Below, in pieces: positions 19,275 to 64,000 of a stretch of DNA of 64,000 nucleotides. Source of the stretch: Cepaea nemoralis (lineage: Eukaryota > Mollusca > Gastropoda > Stylommatophora > Helicidae). The notes under the pieces are model-generated. The model saw only the letters and a program-made list of their open reading frames with translations. It had not been told where the DNA came from and made no database searches. Position 1 is the first letter of the stretch, and each line of letters opens with the position of its first letter. The position numbers and the translations under genes are program-made. The stretch is from NCBI GenBank assembly GCA_014155875.1, contig JACEFZ010018349.1, forward strand, positions 62,001 through 126,000, written 5' to 3'.

Positions 19275-19280
19275 CCCCCA
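19275..19280. other. 6-bp target duplication of the palindromic element, left
   Basis: ccccca, repeated at 32965-32970 immediately outside the right arm. The C-rich motif makes a chance match possible, but it falls exactly at both arm ends. Confidence 0.7.
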
Positions 19281-19499
19281 AGTAGTTATATATGATGCCT
19301 ACTAGCCCCAAGGAGAAGGAGCGCACCTATTTTACTAAGAATAAAGAAGGAGGAGCGGTAGGAGCCGGTAGGTGCTGTCGTTTTTTAGTAAGCGCAAAGA
19401 AGCAGGTGCGGGACATAACTCATGAGTAAAAAAAATCGTCTGTTTTTGTGATATTACCTCCCCTTTTTGAAGAATTTTATTTTTATAAAAATTAAAATT

Positions 19500-19932
19500 T
19501 AATGATTATTGTTATCATGGGTTGTAGTCGGCGGGTCTTAGTGGCGTTAGTTGTTAAGGGATGGGTGAGTTGCGATGTAGCTAGGTAAATGCTTCCGAGC
19601 ACTATCATCATATCCTTTTAGAGCTTCAAATGAAAACCTTACAAATATCAAATGGCCAGTAGTATTGATTTTAATGGGTATGGCTTAGCGAAAGTCGGTG
19701 TTAAGGAGTGGGTAGCGGTTACTAGTGAGCCGTAGAGGGCCGTAGTGGTTTAAACAATATCATCATACAGATTAAAAATGAAAACCTTAAAAAAGTAAAG
19801 ATGACCGGTATTATTGCATTTAGTGGGTATGACCTGTGATATCCATTGTTAAGGGGTGGGGTGAGTGGATGAGTAATTAGATAAACGCTTCTGAACACTA
19901 TCATCGGGTTCGAATCCCAGTGGGGAGGTCTA
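19500..19932 (+). repeat. Three ~148-bp tRNA-like tandem units (left arm)
   Basis: Three diverged repeats each contain tgttaagg-ggtggg(tgag) (near 19551, 19698 and 19846) and cacta-tcatca. The last ends in a perfect B-box-like gggttcgaatccca (19907-19920). This looks like tandem copies of a tRNA-derived SINE head carried by the arm. The mirror lies at 32313-32745. Confidence 0.55.
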
Positions 19933-20029
19933 GTGGTAGAAGAAATATTGATAATGTTTTTGTTACTTAGTTGTGATGGAGAGCTCTGGTGTTATTAATC
20001 CGGCTATATTTAGAAAAGGAGCTGCGGTG

Positions 20030-20270
20030 TGCTGGTTGCTGAGTATGTTTAGGTGGTACCCCAGACACTGTGGAAGTGACAGGTTCGACTCTTGGTACTT
20101 TGTCGTTGGTAAAATTGCCAGTCATCAACGTGTGGGTGTCTAGTTTATCATACGGGTCAGGGTCGCTTTGTCCGGCCGTGTCGCCGCAGCCACAAGTCCC
20201 ACCACTGATGAAAACCACAGGCATCAAATTTTACACTTGTACCTATGCGTCACAAAATATAACATAACTT
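20030..20270 (+). mobile_element. SINE-like block in left arm
   Basis: A B-box-like gacaggttcgactcttg at ~20079-20095 is followed by a body with catcaacgtgtgggtgtc and ccggccgtgtcgccgcag. The mirror is at 31975-32215. It could be a SINE captured before the arm was duplicated. Confidence 0.45.
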
Positions 20271-21059
20271 AAAAATCAGAATACGATTCAAAATCACAAC
20301 AGGTGTTGCCAAAAATCAATACTCATCTTCATAACGGCTAATCCAGGGGATTATCGTCATCGTAATGACCAAGTCAGGTTATTGCTATTACTGATATCTT
20401 CAGGGCTGCAAATAGTTCGCGATATTAATAAAGGTTCATATAAAGGTTGGAAGGGGATTAAGAGCGTAACACCTATTGTCGTAATATCCTATAAAAATCA
20501 ATAGCACTACTCTCGAGTTTTCTCATATGTGGCGGTTGGGGATTATGGGCTAGGTGTGTGTGTCCTTATGCAGTTAAAACGGGTGGTATGAGTAGGAGAT
20601 ATCACAAACAGTATCAGCATGTGCCACTCTGTTCTTAAATATCAGTAGTTCGTTATTCTTGTGACAGTGAAAACGATTGGGGTTTGAAAAAGGATGGTGT
20701 ACTATGTGATACATGTCACCCCTGTCAGCGCATCGTAGCTGTGATCTGGGTTGTCGCCTATTACATCCGGGTGTGAAAATAATCAAACATATTTCAAATC
20801 AGATCAATAGGCATGCCTCTATATAGCTGCACTGCGAACTTGGTTAGAGTCTACTTTAGGAAGTATTGTATGTTTGTGTATGCGCATTTACTACGACTTA
20901 TAAATGGGAGTAGTATTGGAGAGCGGCCGTTATGTATACATTATCAGAGTATGTTGCCTTACAGGGCTGGTGTAGTGTCTTTGTGTCTGCTACGCTGTAT
21001 GTATTGTTCTGTTGCCTTGTATTATTTGGAGGGAGTTTCATGTGGTTGTCAAGTTAATT

Positions 21060-21250
21060 TTTCCCCACTCAGAATCCACATCCCCAGTGTCATTAGATGG
21101 TTTTTAACTTGTCTGCCCATTGTCCTCGCTTCACATTCATACAATAGTATAGGTTCTATGTAGTACTTGAACACTCTTTTTCTCCTTGTAATTGACATCT
21201 TTATATTAGTCATTATGTTTTCCACCTTACCAAAGACTATCTTCAACATA
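21060..21250 (-). pseudogene. RTE reverse-transcriptase fragment (left arm)
   Basis: The minus-strand reading contains YIEPILLYECE, QVKNHLM and MWILSG, matching the C-terminal part of the RTE polymerase read at 42420-42600 (YIEPVLLYGCEVWTM, MWFLRRM). Only ~60 codons remain. It shows the element acquired host retroelement DNA before its arms were duplicated. Confidence 0.75.
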
Positions 21251-21750
21251 TCGAAGCTTGGTCTATCCTCTTAAAGACAACTACTTCTTGTAGTCTCTTT
21301 GCTACATTTTCCCGTGTCAAGCTTCATGTCTCTGATCGTCTGTATTAGTGTGTTAGAAGTAAACCAACATCGCACAAGACAGCCATACACTACCACAATG
21401 TATACAAAAAGAAGCAATACACATAATCACAGTATATAAATATAGTACTAAATAGGAAGTAGTTGAAAGAATTCAAGTACATTATTACAAGGTAAATTAA
21501 ACACAGTGATATGTATAAAATATCACACACCCGTGTTACATTAGCACATAAGTACAAAGCACAAGGGTATGAAATACGTTGGTGTATTAGTTACATACAA
21601 ATGAACCATACAACATACCGGCAAGTCCGCTACGGGACCTAACTCGTGTGAAGTTATGTCTGTAACCAACAGAAATGTGTGTGTGGTAATAACTACAATG
21701 TCTGTCTTTCATCATGTATCTGACCTGTTTGCATACCACTACATTCCTTC

Positions 21751-21960
21751 GTTCACTTGTTGTATACTACCAATCAGGGTAATTGTCCTATAATTGACCC
21801 ACATTTTATGTTAGACAAGCATTGATTGGCTGTTCACTTGTGGTCTACAACCAATCAGGGTAATTGTCTTAGAATTGACCCACATTTTATGTTAGACAAG
21901 CATTGATTGGCTGGCAACTATAAGGTGGGCGGGGCTTACTGTATGTAATATATATCCAAC
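21751..21960 (+). promoter_or_regulatory. Pol II promoter with duplicated CCAAT unit (left arm)
   Basis: Two 81-bp direct repeats (21751-21831 and 21832-21912) each contain ccaatcaggg and an inverted CCAAT (gattggct). They are followed by a GC box (ggtgggcggggc, 21924-21935) and a TATA-like taatatatat (21947-21956). The zinc-finger ATG is ~540 bases downstream. The arrangement is that of a compact eukaryotic or viral Pol II promoter. Activity is inferred. Confidence 0.6.
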
Positions 21961-22494
21961 TCACTACCTCTCACTCACTTTGTGATGTACACAAGAACGA
22001 CGAAAGATTGGATCTTCAGTTTTGTGATTATTCAATGACTATTTGCCTTCAAGTTTAGAAAGTTTGCCATTTACCGTTTTGTCTCAGTATCCACGGACTA
22101 TCAGCCATATACGGACCTACAGCTTTTGCGGCTCTTTCTTCCAATTTTTGGACATTCACAACTGCCTTGTAAGAATTATCAGCCAGATTCTTACCCTGAC
22201 GCATCCGAAGTGTAAGCAACCTCGTTATTCTGCCATAGTTTACAACGTCATCTGCAAAGAAGTCATCGGCGTTTGAAACAAAGACGAGGAAAAAAGTGTT
22301 CGGGATTGAAACAGTTTACTAGACTAGTGAATAACACATCTTGTTGTTTGAGTATTTGACTTACCTATCTAGCCAACATCGTGTTATCGACCTTTGGTGA
22401 AAGATAGAAACTAAATATATTCAACGCTATATTCATCGGCTCGCTGTGAACGTGTGTCAAGTCGACAGTTGCTTGTCTCAGTATCAAGTCGCTA

Positions 22495-23340
22495 GTGAAC
22501 ATGCCTAAAAATACAAAGATGTCAACTAGGCAATCATCTGAGAACCACTTATGTGCAACTTGTGGGAAAGGTTTCACTGAAAGGCGCAGTCTGCTTCGCC
22601 ATACTCGGACCAGTCACAGTACCAAGGAGCAAGTGTATTCGTGTCACACTTGTGGTCATAAGTTTAACAGAAAAGACAATCTACAACGTCACATTACAAA
22701 GGAACACACTACACCAGAAGTATCACCCAGTGTAATACCAACAGACGCTTCAACACCCGCTTCAGCAACACTACGTAAGAGACATGTGGCTACTAATAGT
22801 GATGTGGCAGTCAGCGAGAAGAAGACTAAACAAGACGAAAACTCCCAGCCAGTCAGTGACACACAACCCAAGGATGAAGCGGCTTCTTTACACACTCTTC
22901 CAGATGATATTAGACAAGTATACACCGACAACTGGAGTAGTATCAAAACACATCACAAGATAAACAAATATATGTCTGTCTATACATTTTATATTAGCCC
23001 ACACACAATCCACCCTAAAGACTGGGCATCTACCTTGAACAAGATCTTTACCATTCAAAAGAGCATATTCAAAATCAACTTTAGTTATCATATAGTCCTT
23101 AGGCACAGCGAAACAGACGCTCTTCGATTGTATCACGCATCTTCAAATAATGCTTCTGTCTTAGAACTTCCACAACTAATCAAAAATAGACAAGACTTTG
23201 ACGATTTTATCAAAATAGTACACGAACATGACGTTCTTACCTACGCTATGCAACAACGTCCAAATACCAAATACACTACAGAGACGATTCCAGCTATATG
23301 TTTTTATGTCTATCATATCCCAGAATTCCGGCTTGTTTAA
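22495..23340 (+). CDS. C2H2 zinc-finger protein, left-arm copy
   Basis: 281 codons, uninterrupted. Two C2H2 fingers: residues ~21-43 (CATCGKGF...LLRHTRTSH) and ~50-72 (CHTCGHKF...LQRHITKEH). A Ser/Thr/Pro-rich and Lys-rich linker (~73-135) contains a possible nuclear signal (KKTKQ). A globular C-terminal module (~140-281) is rich in aromatic and hydrophobic residues (YTFYISP, FKINFSYHIVLRHSE, LRLYHASSNN). I have a memory-only impression that similar finger-plus-module proteins occur beside DNA polymerase B genes of large invertebrate elements. A sequence search is needed. The likely role is DNA binding, perhaps at the element's own repeats. AATAAA overlaps the stop (23339-23344). The identical protein is encoded in the other arm. 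Confidence 0.75.
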   Translation: MNMPKNTKMSTRQSSENHLCATCGKGFTERRSLLRHTRTSHSTKEQVYSCHTCGHKFNRKDNLQRHITKEHTTPEVSPSVIPTDASTPASATLRKRHVATNSDVAVSEKKTKQDENSQPVSDTQPKDEAASLHTLPDDIRQVYTDNWSSIKTHHKINKYMSVYTFYISPHTIHPKDWASTLNKIFTIQKSIFKINFSYHIVLRHSETDALRLYHASSNNASVLELPQLIKNRQDFDDFIKIVHEHDVLTYAMQQRPNTKYTTETIPAICFYVYHIPEFRLV

Positions 23341-23575
23341 TAAATAACGCCCCTTTTATGACCCACGTTAGGCACCACTGTGCATGATCATACTAGATAT
23401 AACATTCCATATTTAACCATCCGTTTTGTATACTGTTCCTTTTTGTGTGTGTAAACTTTGCTGGAAATACTGTAAAATAAACAGTTTTATGTATTATAAG
23501 TGCGTTCACTTGTTGGTTTTTAGTGTTGACGGTACATATGAGTGTCATGTGGTGAGCGGGTGTTACATGTTGATG

Positions 23576-24960
23576 GCCAAGTCAAGAAATATCTCAGTCA
23601 TTCTTATAAAAATTAGGAAAATATGTTAACCTAAGGAGAAAAATATTGCCCAAGTAAAGAAAAAATTTACACAAAACTTATAAAACTTAGGAAAATGTGT
23701 TAACCTAAGGAGAAAAATATTGACCAAGTGAAGAAAAAATTTACACAAAACTTATAAAACTTAGGAAAATTTGTTAACTAAATGTGAAAAAATATTTCTC
23801 AAGTGAAGAAAAATTTACACAAAACGTATAAAACTTAGGAAAATGTGTTAACCTAATGAGAAAAATATTGCCCAAGTGAAGAAAAAATGTACACAAAACT
23901 TATAAAACTTAGGAAAATGTGTTAACCTAAGGAGAAAAATATTGTCCAAGTAAAGACATGTTTCAACTAGTCTTATAAATATGTCGCCCAAACTTATGAA
24001 CATTAGGAATATGTGTTATCCAAAAGGGAAAAATATTGACCAAGTGAAAAAATATCTCAACCATACTTATGAAAAGGAGAAAAATGTGTTAACCTAACGG
24101 GAAAAACATTGGCGAAGTGAAGAAATATCTCAGCCATTCTTATAAAAATTAGGAAAATGTGTTAACCTAATGAGAAAAATATTGCCCAAGTGAAGAAAAA
24201 ATTTACACAAAACTTATAAAACTTAGGAAAATTTGATAACTAAATGTGAAAAAATATTTCCCAAGTGAAGAAAAATTTACACAAAACGTATAAAACTTAG
24301 GAAAATGTATTAACCTAATGAGAAAAATATTGCCCAAGTGAAGAAAAAATTTACACAAAACTTATAAAACTTAGGAAAATGTGTTAACCTAGTGAGAAAA
24401 ATATTGACCAAGTAAAGAAAAACATACACCAAACTTCTGAAAAGTAAGAAAATTTGTTAACCAAAGGGGAAAAATATTGGCCAAGTGGAGAAATATCTCA
24501 ACCATACTTATGAAAAGGAGGAAAATGTGTTAACCTAATGAGAAAAATATCGACCAATTGAAGAAAAAAGTTACACAAAACTTATAAAACTTAGGGAAAT
24601 GTGTTAACCTAATGAGAAAATATCGCCCAAGTGAAGAAAAAAGTTACACAAAACTTATAAATCTTAGGAAAATGTGTTAACCTAATGAGAAAAATATCAC
24701 CCAATTGAAGAAAAAAGTTACACAAAACTTATAAAACTTAGGAAAATGTGTTAACCTAATGAGAAAAATATTGACCAAGTAAAGAAAAACGTACACCAAA
24801 CTTCTAAAAAGTAAGAAAATTTGTTAACCAAAAGGGAAAAATATATGGGCTAAACTATGAAATATGTTGACCGAACTAAGAAAGTGTGTTAACCAAAGGG
24901 GGAAAAATGTTGGTCAAAACATGAAACATCTCGACCAAGCTTATAAATATCTCGTGTAAA
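23576..24960 (+). repeat. ~74-bp minisatellite, left arm
   Basis: About 18 imperfect units in the pattern cttataaaacttaggaaaat, then gtgttaacctaatgagaaaa, atattgcccaagtgaag and aaaaaatttacacaaaa. The GTTAAC hexamer is a small dyad repeated every unit. It lies just downstream of the zinc-finger stop and poly(A) signal. It could be a binding array, a replication or packaging signal, or neutral satellite. Confidence 0.88.
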
Positions 24961-25242
24961 CTTATTTAAAAAAAAAGTAGGAACACATATTGCTTCTGTA
25001 GTTATGTCAAACGTGTCTTGAACTTTTATCTGAACAGGCATTTCACAAGACATAATCATCAACGTCAACACTTTCCCTCTTTTACATTACCGAAAGTTTC
25101 AACTTATCAGTCCAGAGTATCCACTAAAGAAGCACTTATGCATACTAATCACCCAGCTCTTCACACTCTTGGTGTTTTTTTTCTTTTTTTTCTTTTCTAA
25201 CGCAAAGTGTCTCTGTCTTTCGTAGATAACTTCACAACTTTT

Positions 25243-25730
25243 CTATGTAGCACCACTAACAACGCCAAACCTTCGTTTCACATGAGCTCTAATGAAACAG
25301 TCATAACAACATTTAGGGCAATCTGTGGCTCCACCTGGGATAGTTTCAATATCATCTGAGTATTCGTCAGCAAAGATCCACTTCCCATGGCTGATATCTT
25401 CAACTTTCTATACCACAATGTCTGTTACACTAACCTTCCATTGGTCCATCTTTCAACAATACAAAGAGTGTTCTCGAAGTCTAGCTAACATAACATTGCT
25501 TACTTTGTCCACCTCTATCACACTTTGTCATTTCACAGCTGCAATAGCGGCAAGTCTGCAACCAACCAACAGTGTCTGTTATGAAGTCGACCTTTCTTAA
25601 AGCCACGTCTGCCTTACTGAACCCTTGAATACCCTCTACCACATCGTCTAACCGACTTTCAACATTTCATACCAAATAACATTAACATTCTCTTTGATTA
25701 CAGAACAACTGATTTTCTGCTGACTAAGCA
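25243..25730 (-). pseudogene. Broken Cys-rich coding-like frame, left arm
   Basis: The minus strand has two open stretches separated by stops. One contains CRYCSCEMTKCDRGG. The other contains DISHGKWIFADEYSDD followed by CPKCCYDC. The clustered CxxC pairs look like a zinc-binding protein that has decayed. Product unknown. The plus strand also has short open frames over the same DNA, so orientation is not certain. Confidence 0.3.
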
Positions 25731-25904
25731 GATTTTCCAACCTCGTGGAGATAAATCATATGCCCCCTAACCTACTAGGCGCTATTCTAGACAACGAATA
25801 TGGTAATCGACCAGCACCCCTAGGCAGAACTTGAAAAAACAACAGAGCTTGGGTTATTGAGACGAATGAGTTGCATTCCTTGGACTACCAGAAAGACATC
25901 AAAC

Positions 25905-26026
25905 ACAACAAACTCTTTCTTACTAACCCTAACCCTAAGTATAAATCAACTAACCCTAACCCTAAACCTAAGTATACATCAACTAACCCTAACCCTAACC
26001 CTAACTATACAACAAACTCTTTCTTA
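25905..26026 (+). repeat. Telomere-like CCCTAA block between 18-bp direct repeats, left arm
   Basis: Three ~33-bp modules of ctaaccctaaccctaa (one with an accctaaaccta variant), separated by gtataaatca/gtatacatca, occupy 25923-26008. The identical 18-mer acaacaaactctttctta sits at 25905-25922 and 26009-26026. CCCTAA reads toward the palindrome centre. Confidence 0.85.
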
Positions 26027-26127
26027 AGAGACATAGATACAAACCAAAGTTAGAAATGAAAAAGTTAAATTTATGTGATTACATTTTAATTAAAATTTAA
26101 AACTAATAAATCGCACTTTTATTGCGC

Positions 26128-26202
26128 GCTTCACTTAATATACAGATATAGGGTAAGTATAGGTATAAGTTAGGTATAGGACATATATCAAACTTACATC
26201 TT
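26128..26202. other. Palindrome spacer (75 bp)
   Basis: The only sequence without an inverted partner. It is AT-rich with several gtataggt/ggtataagt-like steps. On transcription or strand separation it would be the loop of a 6.8-kb hairpin. It is bounded by attgcgc and gcgcaat. Confidence 0.85.
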
Positions 26203-26303
26203 GCGCAATAAAAGTGCGATTTATTAGTTTTAAATTTTAATTAAAATGTAATCACATAAATTTAACTTTTTCATTTCTAACTTTGGTTTGTATCTATGTC
26301 TCT

Positions 26304-26425
26304 TAAGAAAGAGTTTGTTGTATAGTTAGGGTTAGGGTTAGGGTTAGTTGATGTATACTTAGGTTTAGGGTTAGGGTTAGTTGATTTATACTTAGGGTTA
26401 GGGTTAGTAAGAAAGAGTTTGTTGT
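26304..26425 (-). repeat. Telomere-like TTAGGG block between 18-bp direct repeats, right arm
   Basis: Inverted counterpart at 26322-26408 with the 18-mer on both sides. Across the centre the order on the plus strand is CCCTAA then TTAGGG, the opposite of a telomere-telomere end fusion. Confidence 0.85.
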
Positions 26426-26599
26426 GTTTGATGTCTTTCTGGTAGTCCAAGGAATGCAACTCATTCGTCTCAATAACCCAAGCTCTGTTGTTTTTTCAAG
26501 TTCTGCCTAGGGGTGCTGGTCGATTACCATATTCGTTGTCTAGAATAGCGCCTAGTAGGTTAGGGGGCATATGATTTATCTCCACGAGGTTGGAAAATC

Positions 26600-27087
26600 T
26601 GCTTAGTCAGCAGAAAATCAGTTGTTCTGTAATCAAAGAGAATGTTAATGTTATTTGGTATGAAATGTTGAAAGTCGGTTAGACGATGTGGTAGAGGGTA
26701 TTCAAGGGTTCAGTAAGGCAGACGTGGCTTTAAGAAAGGTCGACTTCATAACAGACACTGTTGGTTGGTTGCAGACTTGCCGCTATTGCAGCTGTGAAAT
26801 GACAAAGTGTGATAGAGGTGGACAAAGTAAGCAATGTTATGTTAGCTAGACTTCGAGAACACTCTTTGTATTGTTGAAAGATGGACCAATGGAAGGTTAG
26901 TGTAGCAGACATTGTGGTATAGAAAGTTGAAGATATCAGCCATGGGAAGTGGATCTTTGCTGACGAATACTCAGATGATATTGAAACTATCCCAGGTGGA
27001 GCCACAGATTGCCCTAAATGTTGTTATGACTGTTTCATTAGAGCTCATGTGAAACGAAGGTTTGGCGTTGTTAGTGGTGCTACATAG
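26600..27087 (+). pseudogene. Broken Cys-rich coding-like frame, right arm
   Basis: Mirror of 25243-25730 with the same interruptions, so the gene was already broken when the arms were duplicated. Confidence 0.3.
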
Positions 27088-27364
27088 AAAAGTTGTGAAG
27101 TTATCTACGAAAGACAGAGACACTTTGCGTTAGAAAAGAAAAAAAAAAAACACCAAGAGTGTGAAGAGCTGGGTGATTAGTATGCATAAGTGCTTCTTTA
27201 GTGGATACTCTGGACTGATAAGTTGAAACTTTCGGTAATGTAAAAGAGGGAAAGTGTTGACGTTGATGATTATGTCTTGTGAAATGCCTGTTCAGATAAA
27301 AGTTCAAGACACGTTTGACATAACTACAGAAGCAATATGTGTTCCTACTTTTTTTTTTAAATAA

Positions 27365-28752
27365 GTTTACACGAGATATTTATAAGCTTGGTCGAGATGT
27401 TTCATGTTTTGACCAACATTTTCCCCCCTTTGGTTAACACACTTTCTTAGTTCGGTCAACATATTTCATAGTTTAGCCCATATATTTTTCCCTTTTGGTT
27501 AACAAATTTTCTTACTTTTTAGAAGTTTGGTGTACGTTTTTCTTTACTTGGTCAATATTTTTCTCATTAGGTTAACACATTTTCCTAAGTTTTATAAGTT
27601 TTGTGTAACTTTTTTCTTCAATTGGGTGATATTTTTCTCATTAGGTTAACACATTTTCCTAAGATTTATAAGTTTTGTGTAACCTTTTTCTTCACTTGGG
27701 CGATATTTTCTCATTAGGTTAACACATTTCCCTAAGTTTTATAAGTTTTGTGTAACTTTTTTCTTCAATTGGTCGATATTTTTCTCATTAGGTTAACACA
27801 TTTTCCTCCTTTTCATAAGTATGGTTGAGATATTTCTCCACTTGGCCAATATTTTTCCCCTTTGGTTAACAAATTTTCTTACTTTTCAGAAGTTTGGTGT
27901 ATGTTTTTCTTTACTTGGTCAATATTTTTCTCATTAGGTTAACACATTTTCCTAAGTTTTATAAGTTTTGTGTAAATTTTTTCTTCACTTGGGCAATATT
28001 TTTCTCATTAGGTTAATACATTTTCCTAAGTTTTATACGTTTTGTGTAAATTTTTCTTCACTTGGGAAATATTTTTTCACATTTAGTTATCAAATTTTCC
28101 TAAGTTTTATAAGTTTTGTGTAAATTTTTTCTTCACTTGGGCAATATTTTTCTCATTAGGTTAACACATTTTCCTAATTTTTATAAGAATGGCTGAGATA
28201 TTTCTTCACTTCGCCAATGTTTTTCCCGTTAGGTTAACACATTTTTCTCCTTTTCATAAGTATGGTTGAGATATTTTTTCACTTGGTCAATATTTTTCCC
28301 TTTTGGATAACACATATTCCTAATGTTCATAAGTTTGGGCGACATATTTATAAGACTAGTTGAAACATGTCTTTACTTGGACAATATTTTTCTCCTTAGG
28401 TTAACACATTTTCCTAAGTTTTATAAGTTTTGTGTACATTTTTTCTTCACTTGGGCAATATTTTTCTCATTAGGTTAACACATTTTCCTAAGTTTTATAC
28501 GTTTTGTGTAAATTTTTCTTCACTTGAGAAATATTTTTTCACATTTAGTTAACAAATTTTCCTAAGTTTTATAAGTTTTGTGTAAATTTTTTCTTCACTT
28601 GGTCAATATTTTTCTCCTTAGGTTAACACATTTTCCTAAGTTTTATAAGTTTTGTGTAAATTTTTTCTTTACTTGGGCAATATTTTTCTCCTTAGGTTAA
28701 CATATTTTCCTAATTTTTATAAGAATGACTGAGATATTTCTTGACTTGGCCA
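27365..28752 (-). repeat. ~74-bp minisatellite, right arm
   Basis: Inverted counterpart of the left array with the same order of variant units, including the shorter variants with ttttgtgtaac. The conserved order shows the arms diverged very recently. Confidence 0.88.
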
Positions 28753-28985
28753 TCAACATGTAACACCCGCTCACCACATGACACTCATATGTACCGTCAA
28801 CACTAAAAACCAACAAGTGAACGCACTTATAATACATAAAACTGTTTATTTTACAGTATTTCCAGCAAAGTTTACACACACAAAAAGGAACAGTATACAA
28901 AACGGATGGTTAAATATGGAATGTTATATCTAGTATGATCATGCACAGTGGTGCCTAACGTGGGTCATAAAAGGGGCGTTATTTA

Positions 28986-29831
28986 TTAAACAAGCCGGAA
29001 TTCTGGGATATGATAGACATAAAAACATATAGCTGGAATCGTCTCTGTAGTGTATTTGGTATTTGGACGTTGTTGCATAGCGTAGGTAAGAACGTCATGT
29101 TCGTGTACTATTTTGATAAAATCGTCAAAGTCTTGTCTATTTTTGATTAGTTGTGGAAGTTCTAAGACAGAAGCATTATTTGAAGATGCGTGATACAATC
29201 GAAGAGCGTCTGTTTCGCTGTGCCTAAGGACTATATGATAACTAAAGTTGATTTTGAATATGCTCTTTTGAATGGTAAAGATCTTGTTCAAGGTAGATGC
29301 CCAGTCTTTAGGGTGGATTGTGTGTGGGCTAATATAAAATGTATAGACAGACATATATTTGTTTATCTTGTGATGTGTTTTGATACTACTCCAGTTGTCG
29401 GTGTATACTTGTCTAATATCATCTGGAAGAGTGTGTAAAGAAGCCGCTTCATCCTTGGGTTGTGTGTCACTGACTGGCTGGGAGTTTTCGTCTTGTTTAG
29501 TCTTCTTCTCGCTGACTGCCACATCACTATTAGTAGCCACATGTCTCTTACGTAGTGTTGCTGAAGCGGGTGTTGAAGCGTCTGTTGGTATTACACTGGG
29601 TGATACTTCTGGTGTAGTGTGTTCCTTTGTAATGTGACGTTGTAGATTGTCTTTTCTGTTAAACTTATGACCACAAGTGTGACACGAATACACTTGCTCC
29701 TTGGTACTGTGACTGGTCCGAGTATGGCGAAGCAGACTGCGCCTTTCAGTGAAACCTTTCCCACAAGTTGCACATAAGTGGTTCTCAGATGATTGCCTAG
29801 TTGACATCTTTGTATTTTTAGGCATGTTCAC
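28986..29831 (-). CDS. C2H2 zinc-finger protein, right-arm copy
   Basis: Same 281-residue protein as 22495-23340, with no amino-acid difference, transcribed toward the palindrome centre from the opposite side. The two genes therefore converge on the minisatellites and telomere-like blocks. Preserving both reading frames in a region where the neighbouring hAT and RTE genes are riddled with stops suggests recent duplication, gene conversion or selection. It uses the single-unit promoter at 30370-30494. Function as for the left copy, inferred only from the fingers. Confidence 0.75.
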   Translation of the reverse strand: MNMPKNTKMSTRQSSENHLCATCGKGFTERRSLLRHTRTSHSTKEQVYSCHTCGHKFNRKDNLQRHITKEHTTPEVSPSVIPTDASTPASATLRKRHVATNSDVAVSEKKTKQDENSQPVSDTQPKDEAASLHTLPDDIRQVYTDNWSSIKTHHKINKYMSVYTFYISPHTIHPKDWASTLNKIFTIQKSIFKINFSYHIVLRHSETDALRLYHASSNNASVLELPQLIKNRQDFDDFIKIVHEHDVLTYAMQQRPNTKYTTETIPAICFYVYHIPEFRLV

Positions 29832-30369
29832 TAGCGACTTGATACTGAGACAAGCAACTGTCGACTTGACACACGTTCACAGCGAGCCGATGAATATAGC
29901 GTTGAATATATTTAGTTTCTATCTTTCACCAAAGGTCGATAACACGATGTTGGCTAGATAGGTAAGTCAAATACTCAAACAACAAGATGTGTTATTCACT
30001 AGTCTAGTAAACTGTTTCAATCCCGAACACTTTTTTCCTCGTCTTTGTTTCAAACGCCGATGACTTCTTTGCAGATGACGTTGTAAACTATGGCAGAATA
30101 ACGAGGTTGCTTGCACTTCGGATGCGTCAGGGTAAGAATCTGGCTGATAATTCTTACAAGGCAGTTGTGAATGTCCAAAAATTGGAAGAAAGAGCCGCAA
30201 AAGCTGTAGGTCCGTATATGGCTGATAGTCCGTGGATACTGAGACAAAACGGTAAATGGCAAACTTTCTAAACTTGAAGGCAAATAGTCATTGAATAATC
30301 ACAAAACTGAAGATCCAATCTTTCGTCGTTCTTGTGTACATCACAAAGTGAGTGAGAGGTAGTGAGTTG

Positions 30370-30494
30370 GATATATATTACATACAGTAAGCCCCGCCCA
30401 CCTTATAGTTGCCAGCCAATCAATGCTTGTCTAACATAAAATGTGGGTCAATTCTAAGACAATTACCCTGATTGGTAGTATACAACAAGTGAAC
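30370..30494 (-). promoter_or_regulatory. Pol II promoter with single CCAAT unit (right arm)
   Basis: Same TATA, GC-box and CCAAT arrangement on the minus strand, but only one 81-bp unit (30414-30494). Its distal half matches left unit 1 (ttgtatactacc) and its proximal half matches left unit 2 (gtcttagaattg). It is thus a hybrid left by recombination between two units. Confidence 0.65.
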
Positions 30495-30994
30495 GAAGGA
30501 ATGTAGTGGTATGCAAACAGGTCAGATACATGATGAAAGACAGACATTGTAGTTATTACCACACACACATTTCTGTTGGTTACAGACATAACTTCACACG
30601 AGTTAGGTCCCGTAGCGGACTTGCCGGTATGTTGTATGGTTCATTTGTATGTAACTAATACACCAACGTATTTCATACCCTTGTGCTTTGTACTTATGTG
30701 CTAATGTAACACGGGTGTGTGATATTTTATACATATCACTGTGTTTAATTTACCTTGTAATAATGTACTTGAATTCTTTCAACTACTTCCTATTTAGTAC
30801 TATATTTATATACTGTGATTATGTGTATTGCTTCTTTTTGTATACATTGTGGTAGTGTATGGCTGTCTTGTGCGATGTTGGTTTACTTCTAACACACTAA
30901 TACAGACGATCAGAGACATGAAGCTTGACACGGGAAAATGTAGCAAAGAGACTACAAGAAGTAGTTGTCTTTAAGAGGATAGACCAAGCTTCGA

Positions 30995-31185
30995 TATGTT
31001 GAAGATAGTCTTTGGTAAGGTGGAAAACATAATGACTAATATAAAGATGTCAATTACAAGGAGAAAAAGAGTGTTCAAGTACTACATAGAACCTATACTA
31101 TTGTATGAATGTGAAGCGAGGACAATGGGCAGACAAGTTAAAAACCATCTAATGACACTGGGGATGTGGATTCTGAGTGGGGAAA
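30995..31185 (+). pseudogene. RTE reverse-transcriptase fragment (right arm)
   Basis: Mirror of 21060-21250 with the same protein remnant on the plus strand. Its presence in both arms means capture predates the inverted duplication or was copied by gene conversion. Confidence 0.75.
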
Positions 31186-32312
31186 AATTAACTTGACAAC
31201 CACATGAAACTCCCTCCAAATAATATAAGGCAACAGAACAATACATACAGCGTAGCAGACACAAAGACACTACACCAGCCCTGTAAGGCAACATACTCTG
31301 ATAATGTATACATAACGGCCGCTCTCCAATACTACACACATTTATAAGTCGTAGTAAATGCGCATACACAAACATACAATACTTCCTAAAGTAGACTCTA
31401 ACCAAGTTCGCAGTGCAGCTATATAGAGGCATGCCTATTGATCTGATTTGAAATATGTTTGATTATTTTCACACCCGGATGTAATAGGCGACAACCCAGA
31501 TCACAGCTACGATGCGCTGACAGGGGTGACATGTATCACATAGTACACCATCCTTTTTCAAACCCCAATCGTTTTCACTGTCACAAGAATAACGAACTAC
31601 TGATATTTAAGAACAGAGTGGCACATGCTGATACTGTTTGTGATATCTCCTACTCATACCACCCGTTTTAACTGCATAAGGACACACACACCTAGCCCAT
31701 AATCCCCAACCGCCACATATGAGAAAACTCGAGAGTAGTGCTATTGATTTTTATAGGATATTACGACAATAGGTGTTACGCTCTTAATCCCCTTCCAACC
31801 TTTATATGAACCTTTATTAATATCGCGAACTATTTGCAGCCCTGAAGATATCAGTAATAGCAATAACCTGACTTGGTCATTACGATGACGATAATCCCCT
31901 GGATTAGCCGTTATGAAGATGAGTATTGATTTTTGGCAACACCTGTTGTGATTTTGAATCGTATTCTGATTTTTAAGTTATGTTATATTTTGTGACGCAT
32001 AGGTACAAGTGTAAAATTTGATGCCTGTGGTTTTCATCAGTGGTGGGACTTGTGGCTGCGGCGACACGGCCGGACAAAGCGACCCTGACCCGTATGATAA
32101 ACTAGACACCCACACGTTGATGACTGGCAATTTTACCAACGACAAAGTACCAAGAGTCGAACCTGTCACTTCCACAGTGTCTGGGGTACCACCTAAACAT
32201 ACTCAGCAACCAGCACACCGCAGCTCCTTTTCTAAATATAGCCGGATTAATAACACCAGAGCTCTCCATCACAACTAAGTAACAAAAACATTATCAATAT
32301 TTCTTCTACCAC

Positions 32313-32745
32313 TAGACCTCCCCACTGGGATTCGAACCCGATGATAGTGTTCAGAAGCGTTTATCTAATTACTCATCCACTCACCCCACCCCTTAACAAT
32401 GGATATCACAGGTCATACCCACTAAATGCAATAATACCGGTCATCTTTACTTTTTTAAGGTTTTCATTTTTAATCTGTATGATGATATTGTTTAAACCAC
32501 TACGGCCCTCTACGGCTCACTAGTAACCGCTACCCACTCCTTAACACCGACTTTCGCTAAGCCATACCCATTAAAATCAATACTACTGGCCATTTGATAT
32601 TTGTAAGGTTTTCATTTGAAGCTCTAAAAGGATATGATGATAGTGCTCGGAAGCATTTACCTAGCTACATCGCAACTCACCCATCCCTTAACAACTAACG
32701 CCACTAAGACCCGCCGACTACAACCCATGATAACAATAATCATTA
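32313..32745 (-). repeat. Three ~148-bp tRNA-like tandem units (right arm)
   Basis: Inverted counterpart of 19500-19932, with the B-box-like motif as tgggattcgaaccc at ~32325-32338. Confidence 0.55.
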
Positions 32746-32964
32746 AATTTTAATTTTTTTAAAAATAAAATTCTTCAAAAAGGGGAGGTAATATCACAAA
32801 AACAGACGATTTTTTTTACTCATGAGTTATGTCCCGCACCTGCTTCTTTGCGCTTACTAAAAAACGACAGCACCTACCGGCTCCTACCGCTCCTCCTTCT
32901 TTATTCTTAGTAAAATAGGTGCGCTCCTTCTCCTTGGGGCTAGTAGGCATCATATATAACTACT

Positions 32965-32970
32965 CCCCCA
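32965..32970. other. 6-bp target duplication of the palindromic element, right
   Basis: ccccca, directly after the right-arm terminus ataactact. It pairs with 19275-19280. Confidence 0.7.
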
Positions 32971-42935: not shown

Positions 42936-44219
42936 AAAAGTTAACGTGTACAAACTACAAACATACGACAGGAGAAAGACACTAAAGCGAGCCAACTTCA
43001 TTGGAGTAATGCTATTGTGGCTTGAATGTCAATTTGTGCCAGTCTATCTATAAATGTGTCCAGTACCAGCCACATTTGCGTTAAGTAATTATTGTCTCAA
43101 TCTTAACTGAATACTTTAACATGAGACGGCTTCTGGGGTCTCACTGTGTTCTCGATTTATTTGTGTAGAACATCGACAGAAATAAATGTATCAATGGAGC
43201 TTCTTCATTAAATGAGTAAAATTAGTCAGATAAACAGGTCAAGTACAGGACCCCCCTTCGCGCCTTCAGGCATACTGGATGTGTGGTGTTCGCCATATAC
43301 TTGTATAGATCACTAGGTACTCGGTAAATGATGATGCCACGCAGGCAGTCTTTGCTTCCCGTGACTTTCCATGGTACTTATGTAAGGCTGGATCTACCTG
43401 GAAACTCAGGTCAGTTTCTATACATCCGCTTCAGAAGAGGTTCAAACACATGACCATAAGATTGGCAGGTAAGTGGGCTAGTCACTGCACTGATGGGTAT
43501 CGTCTTGTTGATGTGGTGTTTCTATCACTTGCCACCCATTTAACACATTTGCTACTAGATTTAACATTAGTAAAGTGTAGATGTTAATTAGTACTCATTG
43601 AAGAGAAGTGAGGAAAAGTGTATACCAGAGGGGGCACTCACCGTTTTAATCATCATCACCATCATCACTATACTATCAAGAGGTAGATCATTTGCAGAAT
43701 GCCGCTCTCTTCGAACATAGTAAAAGTATAATATCCATTTACTACCATGTGTTTGTTTATATTGCAAGATCTGTTGATACCCGCTGTGCTTGGATTTGTT
43801 TATATTGCGAGATCATTAACATACTCCTTGTGACTGTATTTGTTTATATTGCAAGATCAATAACATACCCGCTGTGTTTTTATTTGTTTATATTACAAGA
43901 TCAATAATATGCCCGTTGTTTTTGTATTTGTTCACATAGCAAATCAATAACACACCGTCGTATTTGTGTTATTTAAAAAATATGTTCGAAAGCAGTGTCC
44001 AGCTGTGAGTCTTTGATGTGACAGTGCCATCACATATTAAAGTCCTGAATTTCCGGAAGAATATTTCCGTTCCTTAGCAGGCGACGAGCCTGTGCTCGAA
44101 CCCTCGTCAGAGCGTGCTCATAGAATTACCAGCGCGGTTCCCTGCATCTTCACTAACGACGAACGTGATCTGCTGCCTGGGGCTCCAGTCCATATGTACA
44201 CATGGCTGATTTGCCAATC
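42936..44219. other. Intergenic DNA with ~50-bp tandem repeat
   Basis: 43745-43965 holds about five diverged units of ttgtttatattgcaagatca followed by ataacatacccgctgtg. No gene or RNA recognised in the rest. Confidence 0.5.
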
Positions 44220-45492
44220 TTAAATGATGTCCACACTTGGTAGGACCCATTCAAAGAAATCATTGTGTTCTAATGCTGAAATCTGGTCTGCCAATGGCTA
44301 TTATTGATTCTTTTACCTTAAATGATGTCCAGACTTGGTAGGACCCATTCAAAGAAATCATTGTGTTCTAATGCTGAAATCTGGTCTGCCAATGGCTATT
44401 ATTGATTCTTTTACCTTAAATGATGTCCAGACTTGGTAGGACCCATTCAAAGAAATCATTGTGTTCTAATGCTGAAATCTGGTCTGCCAATGGCTATTAT
44501 TGATTCTTTTACCTTAAATGATGTCCAGACTTGGTAGGACCCATTCAAAGAAATCATTGTGTTCTAATGCTGAAATCTGGTCTGCCAATGGCTATTATTG
44601 ATTCTTTTACCTTAAATGATGTCCAGACTTGGTAGGACCCATTCAAAGAAATCATTGTGTTCTAATGCTGAAATCTGGTCTGCCAATGGCTATTATTGAT
44701 TCTTTTACCTTAAATGATGTCCAGACTTGGTAGGACCCATTCAAAGAAATCATTGTGTTCTAATGCTGAATCTGGTCTGCCAATGGCTATTATTGATTCT
44801 TTTACCTTAAATGATGTCCAGACTTGGTAGGACCCATTCAAAGAAATCATTGTGTTCTAATGCTGAAATCTGGTCTGCCAATGGCTATTATTGATTCTTT
44901 TACCTTAAATGATGTCCAGACTTGGTAGGACCCATTCAAAGACATCATTGTGTTCTAATGCTGAAATCTGGTCTGCCAATGGCTATTATTGATTCTTTTA
45001 CCTTAAATGATGTCCAGACTTGGTAGGACCCATTCAAAGAAATCATTGTGTTCTAATGCTGAAATCTGGTCTGCCAATGGCTATTATTGATTCTTTTACC
45101 TTAAATGATGTCCAGACTTGGTAGGACCCATTCAAAGAAATCATTGTGTTCTAATGCTGAAATCTGGTCTGCCAATGGCTATTATTGATTCTTTTACCTT
45201 AAATGATGTCCAGACTTGGTAGGACCCATTCAAAGAAATCATTGTGTTCTAATGCTGAAATCTGGTCTGCCAATGGCTATTATTGATTCTTTTACCTTAA
45301 ATGATGTCCAGACTTGGTAGGACCCATTCAAAGAAATCATTGTGTTCTAATGCTGAAATCTGGTCTGCCAATGGCTATTATTGATTCTTTTACCTTAAAT
45401 GATGTCCAGACTTGGTAGGACCCATTCAAAGAAATCATTGTGTTCTAATGCTGAAATCTGGTCTGCCAATGGCTATTATTGATTCTTTTACC
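44220..45492 (+). repeat. 98-bp satellite, 13 tandem units
   Basis: The unit runs from ttaaatgatgtccagacttg to ttattgattcttttacc. 13 x 98 = 1274, and the array is 1273 bp because one unit lacks one A (near 44769). Only two or three other single-base changes are visible (first unit tccacac, and gacatcattg near 44942). Such homogeneity implies recent amplification. No open frame runs through it. Confidence 0.95.
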
Positions 45493-45519
45493 TGGTGTAT
45501 ACGCTGCTATCTGCTTCGT

Positions 45520-50179: not shown

Positions 50180-51009
50180 TGTCTTGTCAAGTCAAGAAAG
50201 CTGCTGCAGCATTATCAAAAAAAGCTGCTGCTGCTGTTGCTACATATAAGGATGAGACAAATTCAAATTCTGTTGTGGTGGAAAATTCAGTGGCCGCACA
50301 GGCCAGCAATGCTTCTGACCCTGGCGACGAAGTTGATGCAGATGCAGTGTTTGTATCATGTTCAACACCCCAACAGGGTGCCACAATTGGAACTAAAGAG
50401 AAATTCAATTTCAAACTCGTAAAGAAGCGTAAAAATGAGTATGCCGACGGAGCTGAAACCTTAAAAACACAAAGTTGTAAGGAGACCTGGTCTCAGACGA
50501 TGAGTTAAAGGATATCGTACCTGAAGTAAACAGGGACAACGGCGCATCTGATTTGCAGATAATACAACAAACAATTGCATATATTAAAGTTATGGATAGA
50601 GAGTATGCGAGAAAATATGATAAGTATAGAAAGAGAGCAGATACTTCTGCGCCAACGCTTAAATGACGAGAAAAGAGAGAAGCACATGCAAGAACATCTG
50701 GAAAGAAGTCTGAATGCTCTAGTAAGAAAGAAGGAAGACTTGAGCGTGTGCTTCAATGAAATTCAATTTCGTCTAGTACGTGTAGAAAGAGAAAAGAAGA
50801 ATCTGAAAGAACATCTCTTACGAATTGAAAATAAGAAGGCAGCTCCCCCTCTGCTGTGTGTCCACCGTGACGAGGTAGAGGGGCTTGCGCGTTCCAATGA
50901 CCCCAAGAGCTATGCCGACGGTAGCACAGCTACTGGTAGGGTCACCCATGTCGGACAGGTCAAGGGAGAGGGACCAGACGAAGAGACACACAAACCTGCT
51001 GCCTTGTAG
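50180..51009 (+). pseudogene. ORF1-like HLH/coiled-coil protein, left copy, frame-broken
   Basis: It starts MSCQVKKAAAALSKK, an Ala/Lys-rich N-terminus. It then breaks at 50508 because four bases present in the right copy (near 57967) are missing, and breaks again near 50597. The continuing frame 50575-51009 carries the coiled coil (REQILLRQRLNDEKRE... EREKKNLKEHLLRIENKK) and runs ~60 codons further than the right copy before its stop at 51007-51009. See the right copy for domain reasoning. It may be the element's RNA-binding ORF1 or a captured host gene. Confidence 0.5.
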
Positions 51010-51230
51010 GTAGGCTGGGGACAGTCAAAGGCTAGGGAAAGCACCCCGAATAAATGCTTGTCGAAATCGGATGTACTGAGCCACAGGCTTGACAAAGTAG
51101 TGCAACGTAAAACCTGCTGCCTTGTAGGTAGACTGGGGACAGTCAAAGGCTAGGGAAAGCATCCCGAAAAATGCTTGTCGAAATCGGATGTACTGAGCCA
51201 CAGGCTTGACAAAGCAGTGCAACGTAACTT
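50996..51230 (+). repeat. Two 117-bp leader repeats (left copy)
   Basis: Direct repeats start cctgctgccttgtaggtag at 50996 and 51113. Each contains small potential hairpins (aagca...tgctt; agccacaggct). They lie immediately before the endonuclease frame, so they may be promoter repeats such as those amplified in some non-LTR 5' UTRs. The right copy has them at 58477-58711. Confidence 0.8.
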
Positions 51231-58214: not shown

Positions 58215-58715
58215 GACTTGAGCGTGTGCTTCAATTAAATTAAATTTTGTCTAGTACGTGTAGAAAGAGAAAAGAAGAATCTGAAAGAACATCTCTTACG
58301 AATTGAAAATAAGAAGGCAGCTCCCCCTCTGCTGTTGTGTCCACCGTGACGAGGTAGAGGGGCTTGTGCGTCCCAATGACCCCAAGAGCTATGCCGACGG
58401 TAGCACAGCTACTGGTAGGGTCACCCATGTCGGACAGGTCAAGGGAGAGGGACCAGACGAAGAGACACACAAACCTGCTGCCTTGTAGGCAGGCTGGGGA
58501 CAGTCAAAGGCTAGGGAAAGCACCCCAAATAAATGCTTGTCGAAATCGGATGTACTGAGCCACAGGCTTGACAAAGTAGTGCAACGTAAAACCTGCTGCC
58601 TTGTAGGTAGACTGGGGACAGTCAAAGGCTAGGGAAAGCATCCCGAATAAATGCTTGTCGAAATCGGATGTACTGAGCCACAGGCTTGACAAAGCAGTGC
58701 AACGTAACTTAATTC

Positions 58716-63069: not shown

Positions 63070-64000
<931 letters not shown>

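What the first reader, a model, noticed from the sequence alone, without database searches (positions are those of the whole stretch)
19281..32964. 13.7-kb fold-back element with Polinton-like ends carrying two copies of a zinc-finger gene
Seen: 6.8-kb arms, collinear from end to end, a 75-bp spacer, termini 5'-AG...CT-3' and ccccca on both sides. Known: Polintons/Mavericks make 6-bp duplications and have AG/CT ends, but their inverted repeats are normally well under 2 kb and flank polymerase B, integrase, ATPase and capsid genes. Inference: a non-autonomous derivative in which one end was copied in inverted orientation, mobilised by an integrase in trans. This would be an undescribed architecture (palindromic transposon with coding arms).
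Basis: partly seen in the sequence, partly recalled or inferred. Interest (0 to 1): 0.92.

Follow-up and report, generated by a model that had tools for sequence, protein, structure and literature searches.

The report
Mirror-image jumping genes from Polintons
A jumping DNA element in this animal genome is almost a perfect mirror image of itself, exists in hundreds of copies, and seems to rebuild one half from the other when it multiplies, an arrangement that our limited searches did not find described for this virus-like class of transposon.

Summary
The 13.7-kb fold-back is real. Its arms agree in 6752 of 6848 aligned columns and it has a perfect 6-bp target duplication. A 22-mer from its centre occurs 814 times in the host genome (up to one mismatch; control 0). 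All 9 other copies read in pieces (8 insertions) are fold-backs. Six of 7 testable insertions, window included, have exact 6-bp duplications. AGTAGT...ACTACT is the commonest vertebrate Maverick end motif. A second fold-back family carries polymerase B in both arms. Its ends nearly match those of 14.6-15.2-kb elements with one scored polymerase. 'One end copied inverted' is thus well supported for that family and, by analogy, for the zinc-finger one. Left and right arms differ by 0.1-2.8%; divergent elements by 4.7-12.5%. In four divergent elements the two arms are sisters with full support; three young elements are unresolved. Best reading: palindromic Polinton derivatives whose arms are made alike at replication, probably by snap-back copying, and integrated in trans. 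Gene conversion between arms is the main rival. Integrase, capsid and packaging genes were not tested.

The parts
19275..19280 (.). left copy of the 6-bp target-site duplication (ccccca)
   Evidence: read directly; identical to 32965-32970
19281..26127 (+). left arm, 6847 bp, beginning AGTAGTTATATATGATGCC
   Evidence: inverted repeat; 6752 of 6848 columns identical to the right arm
21751..21913 (.). 81-bp tandem pair, single in the right arm: the largest difference between the arms
22501..23340 (+). zinc-finger gene, left copy (279 aa, two C2H2 fingers, C-terminal part of about 150 aa without known relatives)
   Evidence: 139 scored matches in the same genome; no relative of residues 126-279 at E 10 in the large protein search
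23603..24844 (.). about 74-bp minisatellite in the left arm
25923..26015 (.). 33-bp repeats rich in CCCTAA-like hexamers, left of centre
26128..26202 (.). 75-bp asymmetric spacer, the loop if the element folds; homologous in other copies that keep it
   Evidence: 814 genome matches to its 22-mer at up to one mismatch, control 0
26203..32964 (-). right arm, 6762 bp, mirror of the left arm
26315..26407 (.). 33-bp repeats, right of centre
27482..28723 (.). about 74-bp minisatellite in the right arm
28986..29825 (-). zinc-finger gene, right copy, same 279-aa protein
32965..32970 (.). right copy of the 6-bp target-site duplication (ccccca)

Best explanation
This is one copy of a high-copy family of palindromic, Polinton-derived mobile elements. 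Shown: both ends are the same terminus; the arms are near-identical inverted copies around a homologous 75-bp centre; testable insertions carry 6-bp target duplications; in divergent elements the two arms are each other's closest relatives; and a second palindromic family with polymerase B in both arms shares its termini with single-polymerase Polinton-type elements. Inferred: (1) palindromes arise when the displaced strand of a protein-primed, Polinton-type replication snaps back near an internal point and is copied, so that one end and its genes become two mirror halves; (2) the product has a replication terminus at each end, so a helper polymerase can replicate it, and its single strand can fold into a hairpin with a 75-nt loop whose stem is copied, so both arms descend from one template in a cycle; (3) an integrase in trans inserts it; (4) after insertion the arms drift and the centre is often damaged by asymmetric deletion. 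The zinc-finger protein is probably an element-borne DNA-binding accessory, not needed in cis, because some fold-back copies lack it in both arms.
For: Nine other copies read in pieces (8 insertions; C26526 and C4747 share flanks) are all fold-backs. Of 9 insertions counting the window, 5 keep a complete centre and 4 have an asymmetric deletion at or beside it. Exact 6-bp duplications: 6 of 7 testable, the seventh 5 of 6. AGTAGT/ACTACT with 6-bp duplications is a reported Maverick end class. Zinc-finger matches: 44 of 95 contigs carry two and 44 of 44 are convergent. Centre 22-mer: 814 matches, control 0; within 30 bp of the element midpoint in 7 of the 9 two-ended elements where one was listed. 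Left-right differences 0.1-2.8% against 4.7-12.5% between divergent lineages; C10275, C13016, C25214 and C26505 have left and right arms as sisters at 100/100, C3912 99/100, C6389 93/97. Zinc-finger loss and module differences are present in both arms of C3912, C13016 and C25214. Polymerase family: C9089 arms about 6.1 kb with a 67-bp spacer, C19005 centre palindromic, six convergent pairs. Of 31 two-ended elements among listed ends, 12 have one scored polymerase (14.6-15.2 kb), 6 have two (12.2-16.1 kb) and 13 have none scored.
Against: No integrase, capsid or ATPase was looked for successfully (PF04665 unanswered). No ordinary parent of the zinc-finger family was found. C9089 shows a 5-bp, not 6-bp, duplication, and the polymerase families begin AGTAGG or AGTAGA, not AGTAGT. 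C26526 left and right arms are not sisters, and C356 and C17003 are weakly resolved. Differences between arms are unevenly spread: C13016 has 61 of 68 in about 750 bp, C26505 50 of 85 in the outer 1.5 kb, which suggests tract exchange in the chromosome. 11 of 20 two-ended elements had no exact centre listed. No replication intermediate was observed.
Confidence: 0.58

Rival explanations
1. Fold-back by repair: the long inverted repeats grew from ordinary terminal repeats by break repair that copied one end onto the other, and arm-to-arm gene conversion in the chromosome keeps them alike, as proposed for Galileo. No replicative snap-back is needed.
For: Galileo terminal repeats of one copy are 98-100% identical, and repair-driven extension of inverted repeats has been proposed (PMC3573991, passages). 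In C13016 61 of 68 left-right differences lie in about 750 bp; in C26505 50 of 85 lie in the outer 1.5 kb; in C10275 14 of 28 in one 750-bp stretch.
Against: A longest-identical-run test finds nothing unusual in 6 of the 7 elements tested (P 0.16-0.59; C13016 P below 0.001), though that test is weak. In C26526 and C4747, which share one insertion, left-right divergence (12 and 17 differences in about 2.3 kb) is close to that between their left arms and their right arms, so no continuing conversion is seen there.
Confidence: 0.3
2. The fold-back is real but not Polinton-derived: an unrelated DNA transposon with 6-bp duplications and AG...CT ends.
For: The window's contig has no match among the 95 polymerase B matches reported, and the zinc-finger arms share no long sequence with the polymerase B pieces compared. 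Other superfamilies also make fold-backs (PMC4079207, passages).
Against: AGTAGT/ACTACT plus a 6-bp duplication is a reported Maverick signature. Polymerase B sits in the sister fold-backs of the same genome.
Confidence: 0.12
3. Assembly or library artefact (fold-back read).
For: Fold-back artefacts in long reads are known (PMC12870357, title and start of abstract in the search listing).
Against: Different flanks with matching 6-bp duplications, arms with private mutations, hundreds of matches to the same centre.
Confidence: 0.01

Closest known systems
Polinton/Maverick transposons
   Same: AGTAGT...ACTACT ends and 6-bp target duplications as in vertebrate Mavericks (PMC8097293, passages). A sister palindromic family, and single-polymerase elements with ends like that family's, carry polymerase B.
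   Different: Vertebrate Maverick terminal repeats are 46-1447 bp, mean 402, in elements with eight conserved genes. Here the inverted repeat is the whole element. No polymerase B match was reported on the window's contig; integrase and capsid genes were not tested.
Fold-back transposons (Galileo, Tetris; FB recalled)
   Same: Long inverted repeats with internal tandem repeats, mostly non-autonomous, high identity between the two repeats of one copy (PMC3573991 and PMC4079207, passages).
   Different: Those are placed in the P or Mutator superfamilies; Tetris duplications are 8-10 bp. The longest Galileo repeat quoted for D. mojavensis is about 1.26 kb. Here the arms are 6-7 kb, carry genes, and duplications are 6 bp.
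Snap-back (self-complementary) defective virus genomes, as in adeno-associated virus
   Same: One genome end with its genes becomes a self-complementary molecule that can replicate with helper functions (PMC8235507, passages).
   Different: Those are subgenomic molecules in virus populations. Here the palindromes are integrated, multi-copy families.

Membership tests
Polinton/Maverick | 6-bp target-site duplication | tested here: met
   6 of 7 testable zinc-finger-family insertions exact, 1 with 5 of 6. In the polymerase family the one site read shows 5 bp.
Polinton/Maverick | AG...CT termini, commonly (AGT)2...(ACT)2 | tested here: met
   Searches (one right end, C26505, reads ACTATT; C25214 right end truncated; 428 matches to the end pattern, control 2). 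Polymerase families begin AGTAGG or AGTAGA.
Polinton/Maverick | protein-primed type polymerase B inside the element | tested here: not met
   No PF03175 match on the window's contig among the 95 reported (91 of 296 candidates scored), no frame over 296 aa in the arms. Met in the sister palindromes. So the zinc-finger element is at most a derivative, not a complete Polinton.
Polinton/Maverick | retroviral-type integrase | not tested
   No integrase search was run; no frame over 296 aa in the arms, spliced genes not considered
Polinton/Maverick | packaging ATPase, protease and capsid genes | not tested
   PF04665 search unanswered
Polinton/Maverick | short terminal repeats (46-1447 bp in vertebrates) | tested here: not met
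   6.8-kb arms
Fold-back transposons of the P or Mutator kind | long inverted repeats with internal tandem repeats | tested here: met
Fold-back transposons of the P or Mutator kind | 8-10 bp duplications as in Tetris (7 bp for Galileo is recalled) | tested here: not met
   6 bp
Snap-back replication derivative | same gene set and same terminus at both ends, derived from one end of a longer element | tested here: inconclusive
   Fits the polymerase family by coordinates. For the zinc-finger family the longer parent was not found.
Snap-back replication derivative | hairpin or self-complementary replication intermediate | not testable with these tools
   needs DNA from the animal

The most novel reading that the evidence does not exclude
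The element's true genetic unit is one arm. It replicates as a hairpin (6.8-kb stem, 75-nt loop) with a protein-primed Polinton-type terminus, opens into a palindromic dimer, and integrates in that form. Snap-back derivatives thus became a self-sustaining, repeatedly evolved class of transposon: two families here, one carrying the polymerase itself, one a satellite with a zinc-finger protein. Regeneration of both arms from one template would repair and homogenise the element in each generation.
Probability: 0.33. Interest if true: 0.86.

Novelty: new variant of a known kind. Interest (0 to 1): 0.74.

Why it matters
Long near-perfect palindromes are usually unstable (general knowledge), yet here one is a successful mobile element in hundreds of copies. 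To my knowledge Polinton replication is inferred from genes rather than observed. Palindromes whose arms are alike at birth would be a genomic footprint of the replication mode and make it testable. They would also link transposon fold-backs to the snap-back genomes known from viruses, and show a way by which a virus-like transposon spawns parasites of itself.

Tried and rejected
Artefact: rejected (see rivals). Relatives of the zinc-finger protein outside this genome: none in phages or IMG/VR. The large protein search gave three zinc-finger hits matching 18-19% of the query and none for residues 126-279 at E 10. A parent Polinton for the zinc-finger family was not found. The 1.45 kb upstream of one common polymerase (C380, L064) has no long similarity to the zinc-finger arm. 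RNA families and tRNAs in the window: none at the default thresholds. Selection on the zinc-finger gene: one 79% pair gave dN/dS 0.58 by NG86 (0.65 by YN00), 58 amino-acid changes against 68.1 +/- 3.9 for random placement, and zero stops against 2.2% of random placements. Against constraint, in young copies nearly all changes replace an amino acid (9 of 10 nucleotide changes between window and C26505 left). The polymerase pair gave dN 0.088, dS 0.770.

Faults and dropped rows: one search aligned right-arm pieces in the wrong orientation and is not used; one search replaces it. In one search the C26526 and C4747 right arms include part of an insertion and are set aside. In one search the window's right-arm copy was cut out of register and its rows are ignored. 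C4747 was dropped from the tree test as the same insertion as C26526. That test rejected 'all contig-left arms one clade, all contig-right arms another' (deltaL 1415, pAU 1e-7), but left and right are arbitrary for an element that can insert either way. I therefore rest on the sister pairs and not on that P value. On rechecking the arm differences proved less evenly spread than I had first written, so the odds of the best reading and of the novel case were lowered and those of gene conversion raised. The right end of C25214 is truncated and that of C13016 lay outside the fetched piece. C7638, the tenth other contig with paired ends, was not fetched.

Lower bounds: one search scored 40 of 3362 candidates, 139 of 10233, 91 of 296, 40 of 428. 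Single hits there do not show that a partner is absent. Pattern lists show at most 100 places: one search used 100 of 309 ends; one search used 100 of 428 ends and 100 of 814 centres (exact ones only); one search used 100 of 181 plus all 38. The structure prediction of the zinc-finger protein was accepted and had not finished, so no fold is claimed. The genome search answered 9 times and was busy 37 times. Requests were repeated unchanged except for fewer loci; the end pattern was replaced later by a broader one.
Full report
THE OBSERVATION. The window holds an inverted duplication of 6847 bp (19281-26127) and 6762 bp (26203-32964) around a 75-bp spacer. Aligned end to end, 6752 of 6848 columns agree: 9 substitutions, an 81-bp tandem unit present only in the left arm, and gaps of 5 and 1 bp. 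It starts AGTAGT and ends ACTACT and is flanked by ccccca on both sides. Each arm has an intact 279-aa two-finger C2H2 protein gene, a 74-bp minisatellite and, near the centre, CCCTAA-like 33-bp repeats.

IT IS A MOBILE FAMILY. The window lies in a 3.47-Gb, 26,579-contig genome. The first kilobase of the arm finds further copies; ten other contigs show ends in + and - orientation 10-26 kb apart. Nine of these ten were fetched in pieces (C7638 was left out) and all nine are fold-backs. Two of them, C26526 and C4747, have the same flanks and the same secondary insertion of about 8.4 kb and count as one insertion. Target duplications: exact 6 bp in 6 of 7 testable insertions (window, C356, C26526/C4747, C6389, C26505, C10275), 5 of 6 in C3912. 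The right end of C25214 is truncated and that of C13016 lay outside the fetched piece. With the window there are nine insertions. Five keep the complete centre. Four (C6389, C26505, C25214, C10275) have a deletion at or beside the centre that cuts unequally into the two arms; the spacer itself is still found in C6389 but not in the other three.

SIZE OF THE FAMILY. A 22-mer from the centre, with up to one mismatch, occurs 814 times; read backwards, 0. The degenerate end pattern occurs 428 times, control 2; an outer-arm 22-mer 309 times, control 0. Among the 100 ends listed, neighbouring ends under 25 kb apart are + then - in 27 of 34 cases; the seven exceptions include a 3.17-kb tandem of arm ends on C3476. 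On contigs up to C5324, 20 elements have both ends listed. Nine of them contain a listed exact centre, and in 7 it lies within 30 bp of the midpoint. Of the other two, C4747 carries the 8.4-kb insertion and C3912 is off by 1.8 kb. The zinc-finger protein gives 139 scored matches on 95 contigs. Forty-four contigs have two matches, all 44 convergent, and 51 have one. In 125 of 139 there is no internal stop (counted; these are the best-scoring matches).

ARMS EVOLVE TOGETHER. Over the outer 1.85 kb the two arms of one element differ by 0.1-2.8%. Divergent elements differ by 4.7-12.5%, and the young ones (window, C356, C26526, C4747, C6389, C3912) by 0.05-1.5%. In the tree the arms of C10275, C13016, C25214 and C26505 are sisters at 100/100, C3912 at 99/100 and C6389 at 93/97. 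The window's own two arms and those of C356 are weakly resolved, and C26526's are not sisters. A lasting split into two arm lineages cannot produce fully supported sister pairs in four divergent elements. Structural changes are symmetric too. C13016, C25214 and C3912 lack the zinc-finger segment in both arms, and C3912 carries window-like outer 1.9 kb in both arms with diverged inner parts. So at or before insertion both arms largely trace to one template.

After insertion the picture is mixed. The shared C26526/C4747 insertion shows left-right divergence (12 and 17 differences) like its allelic divergence (16 and 9). A longest-identical-run test is unremarkable in 6 of 7 elements. But C13016 has 61 of 68 differences in about 750 bp, C26505 has 50 of 85 in its outer 1.5 kb, and C10275 has 14 of 28 in one 750-bp stretch. 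Tract exchange therefore happens, and gene conversion as the homogenising force is not excluded.

POLINTON KINSHIP. Vertebrate Mavericks most often end 5'-(AGT)2//(ACT)2-3' with 6-bp duplications and terminal repeats of 46-1447 bp (PMC8097293, passages). The zinc-finger family has these ends. The genome is rich in polymerase B of the organellar/viral type: 95 matches. Two contigs showed convergent pairs. C9089 proved to be a 12.2-kb palindrome with a 67-bp spacer and a polymerase frame of 1404-1409 aa in each arm. Its inner 2643 bp differ at one site between arms, and its duplication is 5 bp. C19005 has a palindromic centre with 95% identical arms and a spacer of about 0.77 kb. A DNA search raised this to six convergent pairs among 13 contigs matching at 95% or more; the other seven showed one scored match.

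The end sequence of this family nearly matches that of single-polymerase elements. Of 31 elements with both ends listed, 12 have one scored polymerase 2.7-2.8 kb from one end and are 14.6-15.2 kb long. Six have two, 3.3-5.6 kb from the ends, and are 12.2-16.1 kb. Thirteen have none scored. Polymerase pieces of the two kinds differ with dN 0.088 and dS 0.770.

MECHANISM. The reading I prefer is replicative. A displaced strand of a terminal-primed replication folds back and is copied. The resulting palindrome has a terminus at each end, and its strand can refold into a hairpin with a short loop, so that a cycle can rebuild both arms from one. Snap-back genomes made of one virus end, able to replicate with helper functions, are described for adeno-associated virus (PMC8235507, passages). 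The formation and hairpin steps, and integration in trans, are inferred. The chief rival is terminal-repeat extension by repair plus gene conversion, as argued for Galileo (PMC3573991, passages).

THE ZINC-FINGER PROTEIN. No relatives of its C-terminal part were found outside the genome. Against a 79% copy it shows 98 nucleotide and 58 amino-acid changes, no stops, and dN/dS 0.58, a mild constraint; young copies give no sign of constraint. The first finger's helix segment (position recalled from the C2H2 fold) differs between subfamilies, as might happen if it reads the element's own DNA; that is speculation. Fold-back copies without the gene also carry the family's ends, so it seems not to be needed in cis.

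NOVELTY. Fold-back elements are known from other superfamilies (PMC4079207, passages). In the listings of eight paper searches I saw no palindromic Polinton. One paper says expansion of Polinton inverted repeats has been reported; I did not see its source. I therefore call this a new variant of a known kind.

Noticed in passing
G000:C3476:39123-49629: Four copies of the arm end in direct order 3.17 kb apart: a fold-back end turned into a tandem array.
   Followed up: no
L025 and L026 (C13016): Outer arms nearly identical except for about 750 bp with about 8% divergence (61 of 68 differences), probably a tract copied in from another element.
   Followed up: partly
G000:C4403:219606-226076: The two zinc-finger genes of one convergent pair match the window's at 94% and 84%, an unusually unequal pair.
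   Followed up: no
44219-45493: 98-bp tandem array, 13 copies, 99% matches.
   Followed up: no
50992-51227 and 58471-58707: Two similar tandem pairs of a 117-118-bp unit, each followed by a similar reading frame (51233 and 58713); looks like two copies of one retroelement, the second shorter.
   Followed up: no
window 26128-26202 and genome: The centre 22-mer is found more often (814) than the outer-arm 22-mer (309) at one mismatch, hinting at palindromes that share a centre but have other arms; the two patterns may simply differ in conservation.
   Followed up: no
63428-64000: GT microsatellite running off the window end.
   Followed up: no
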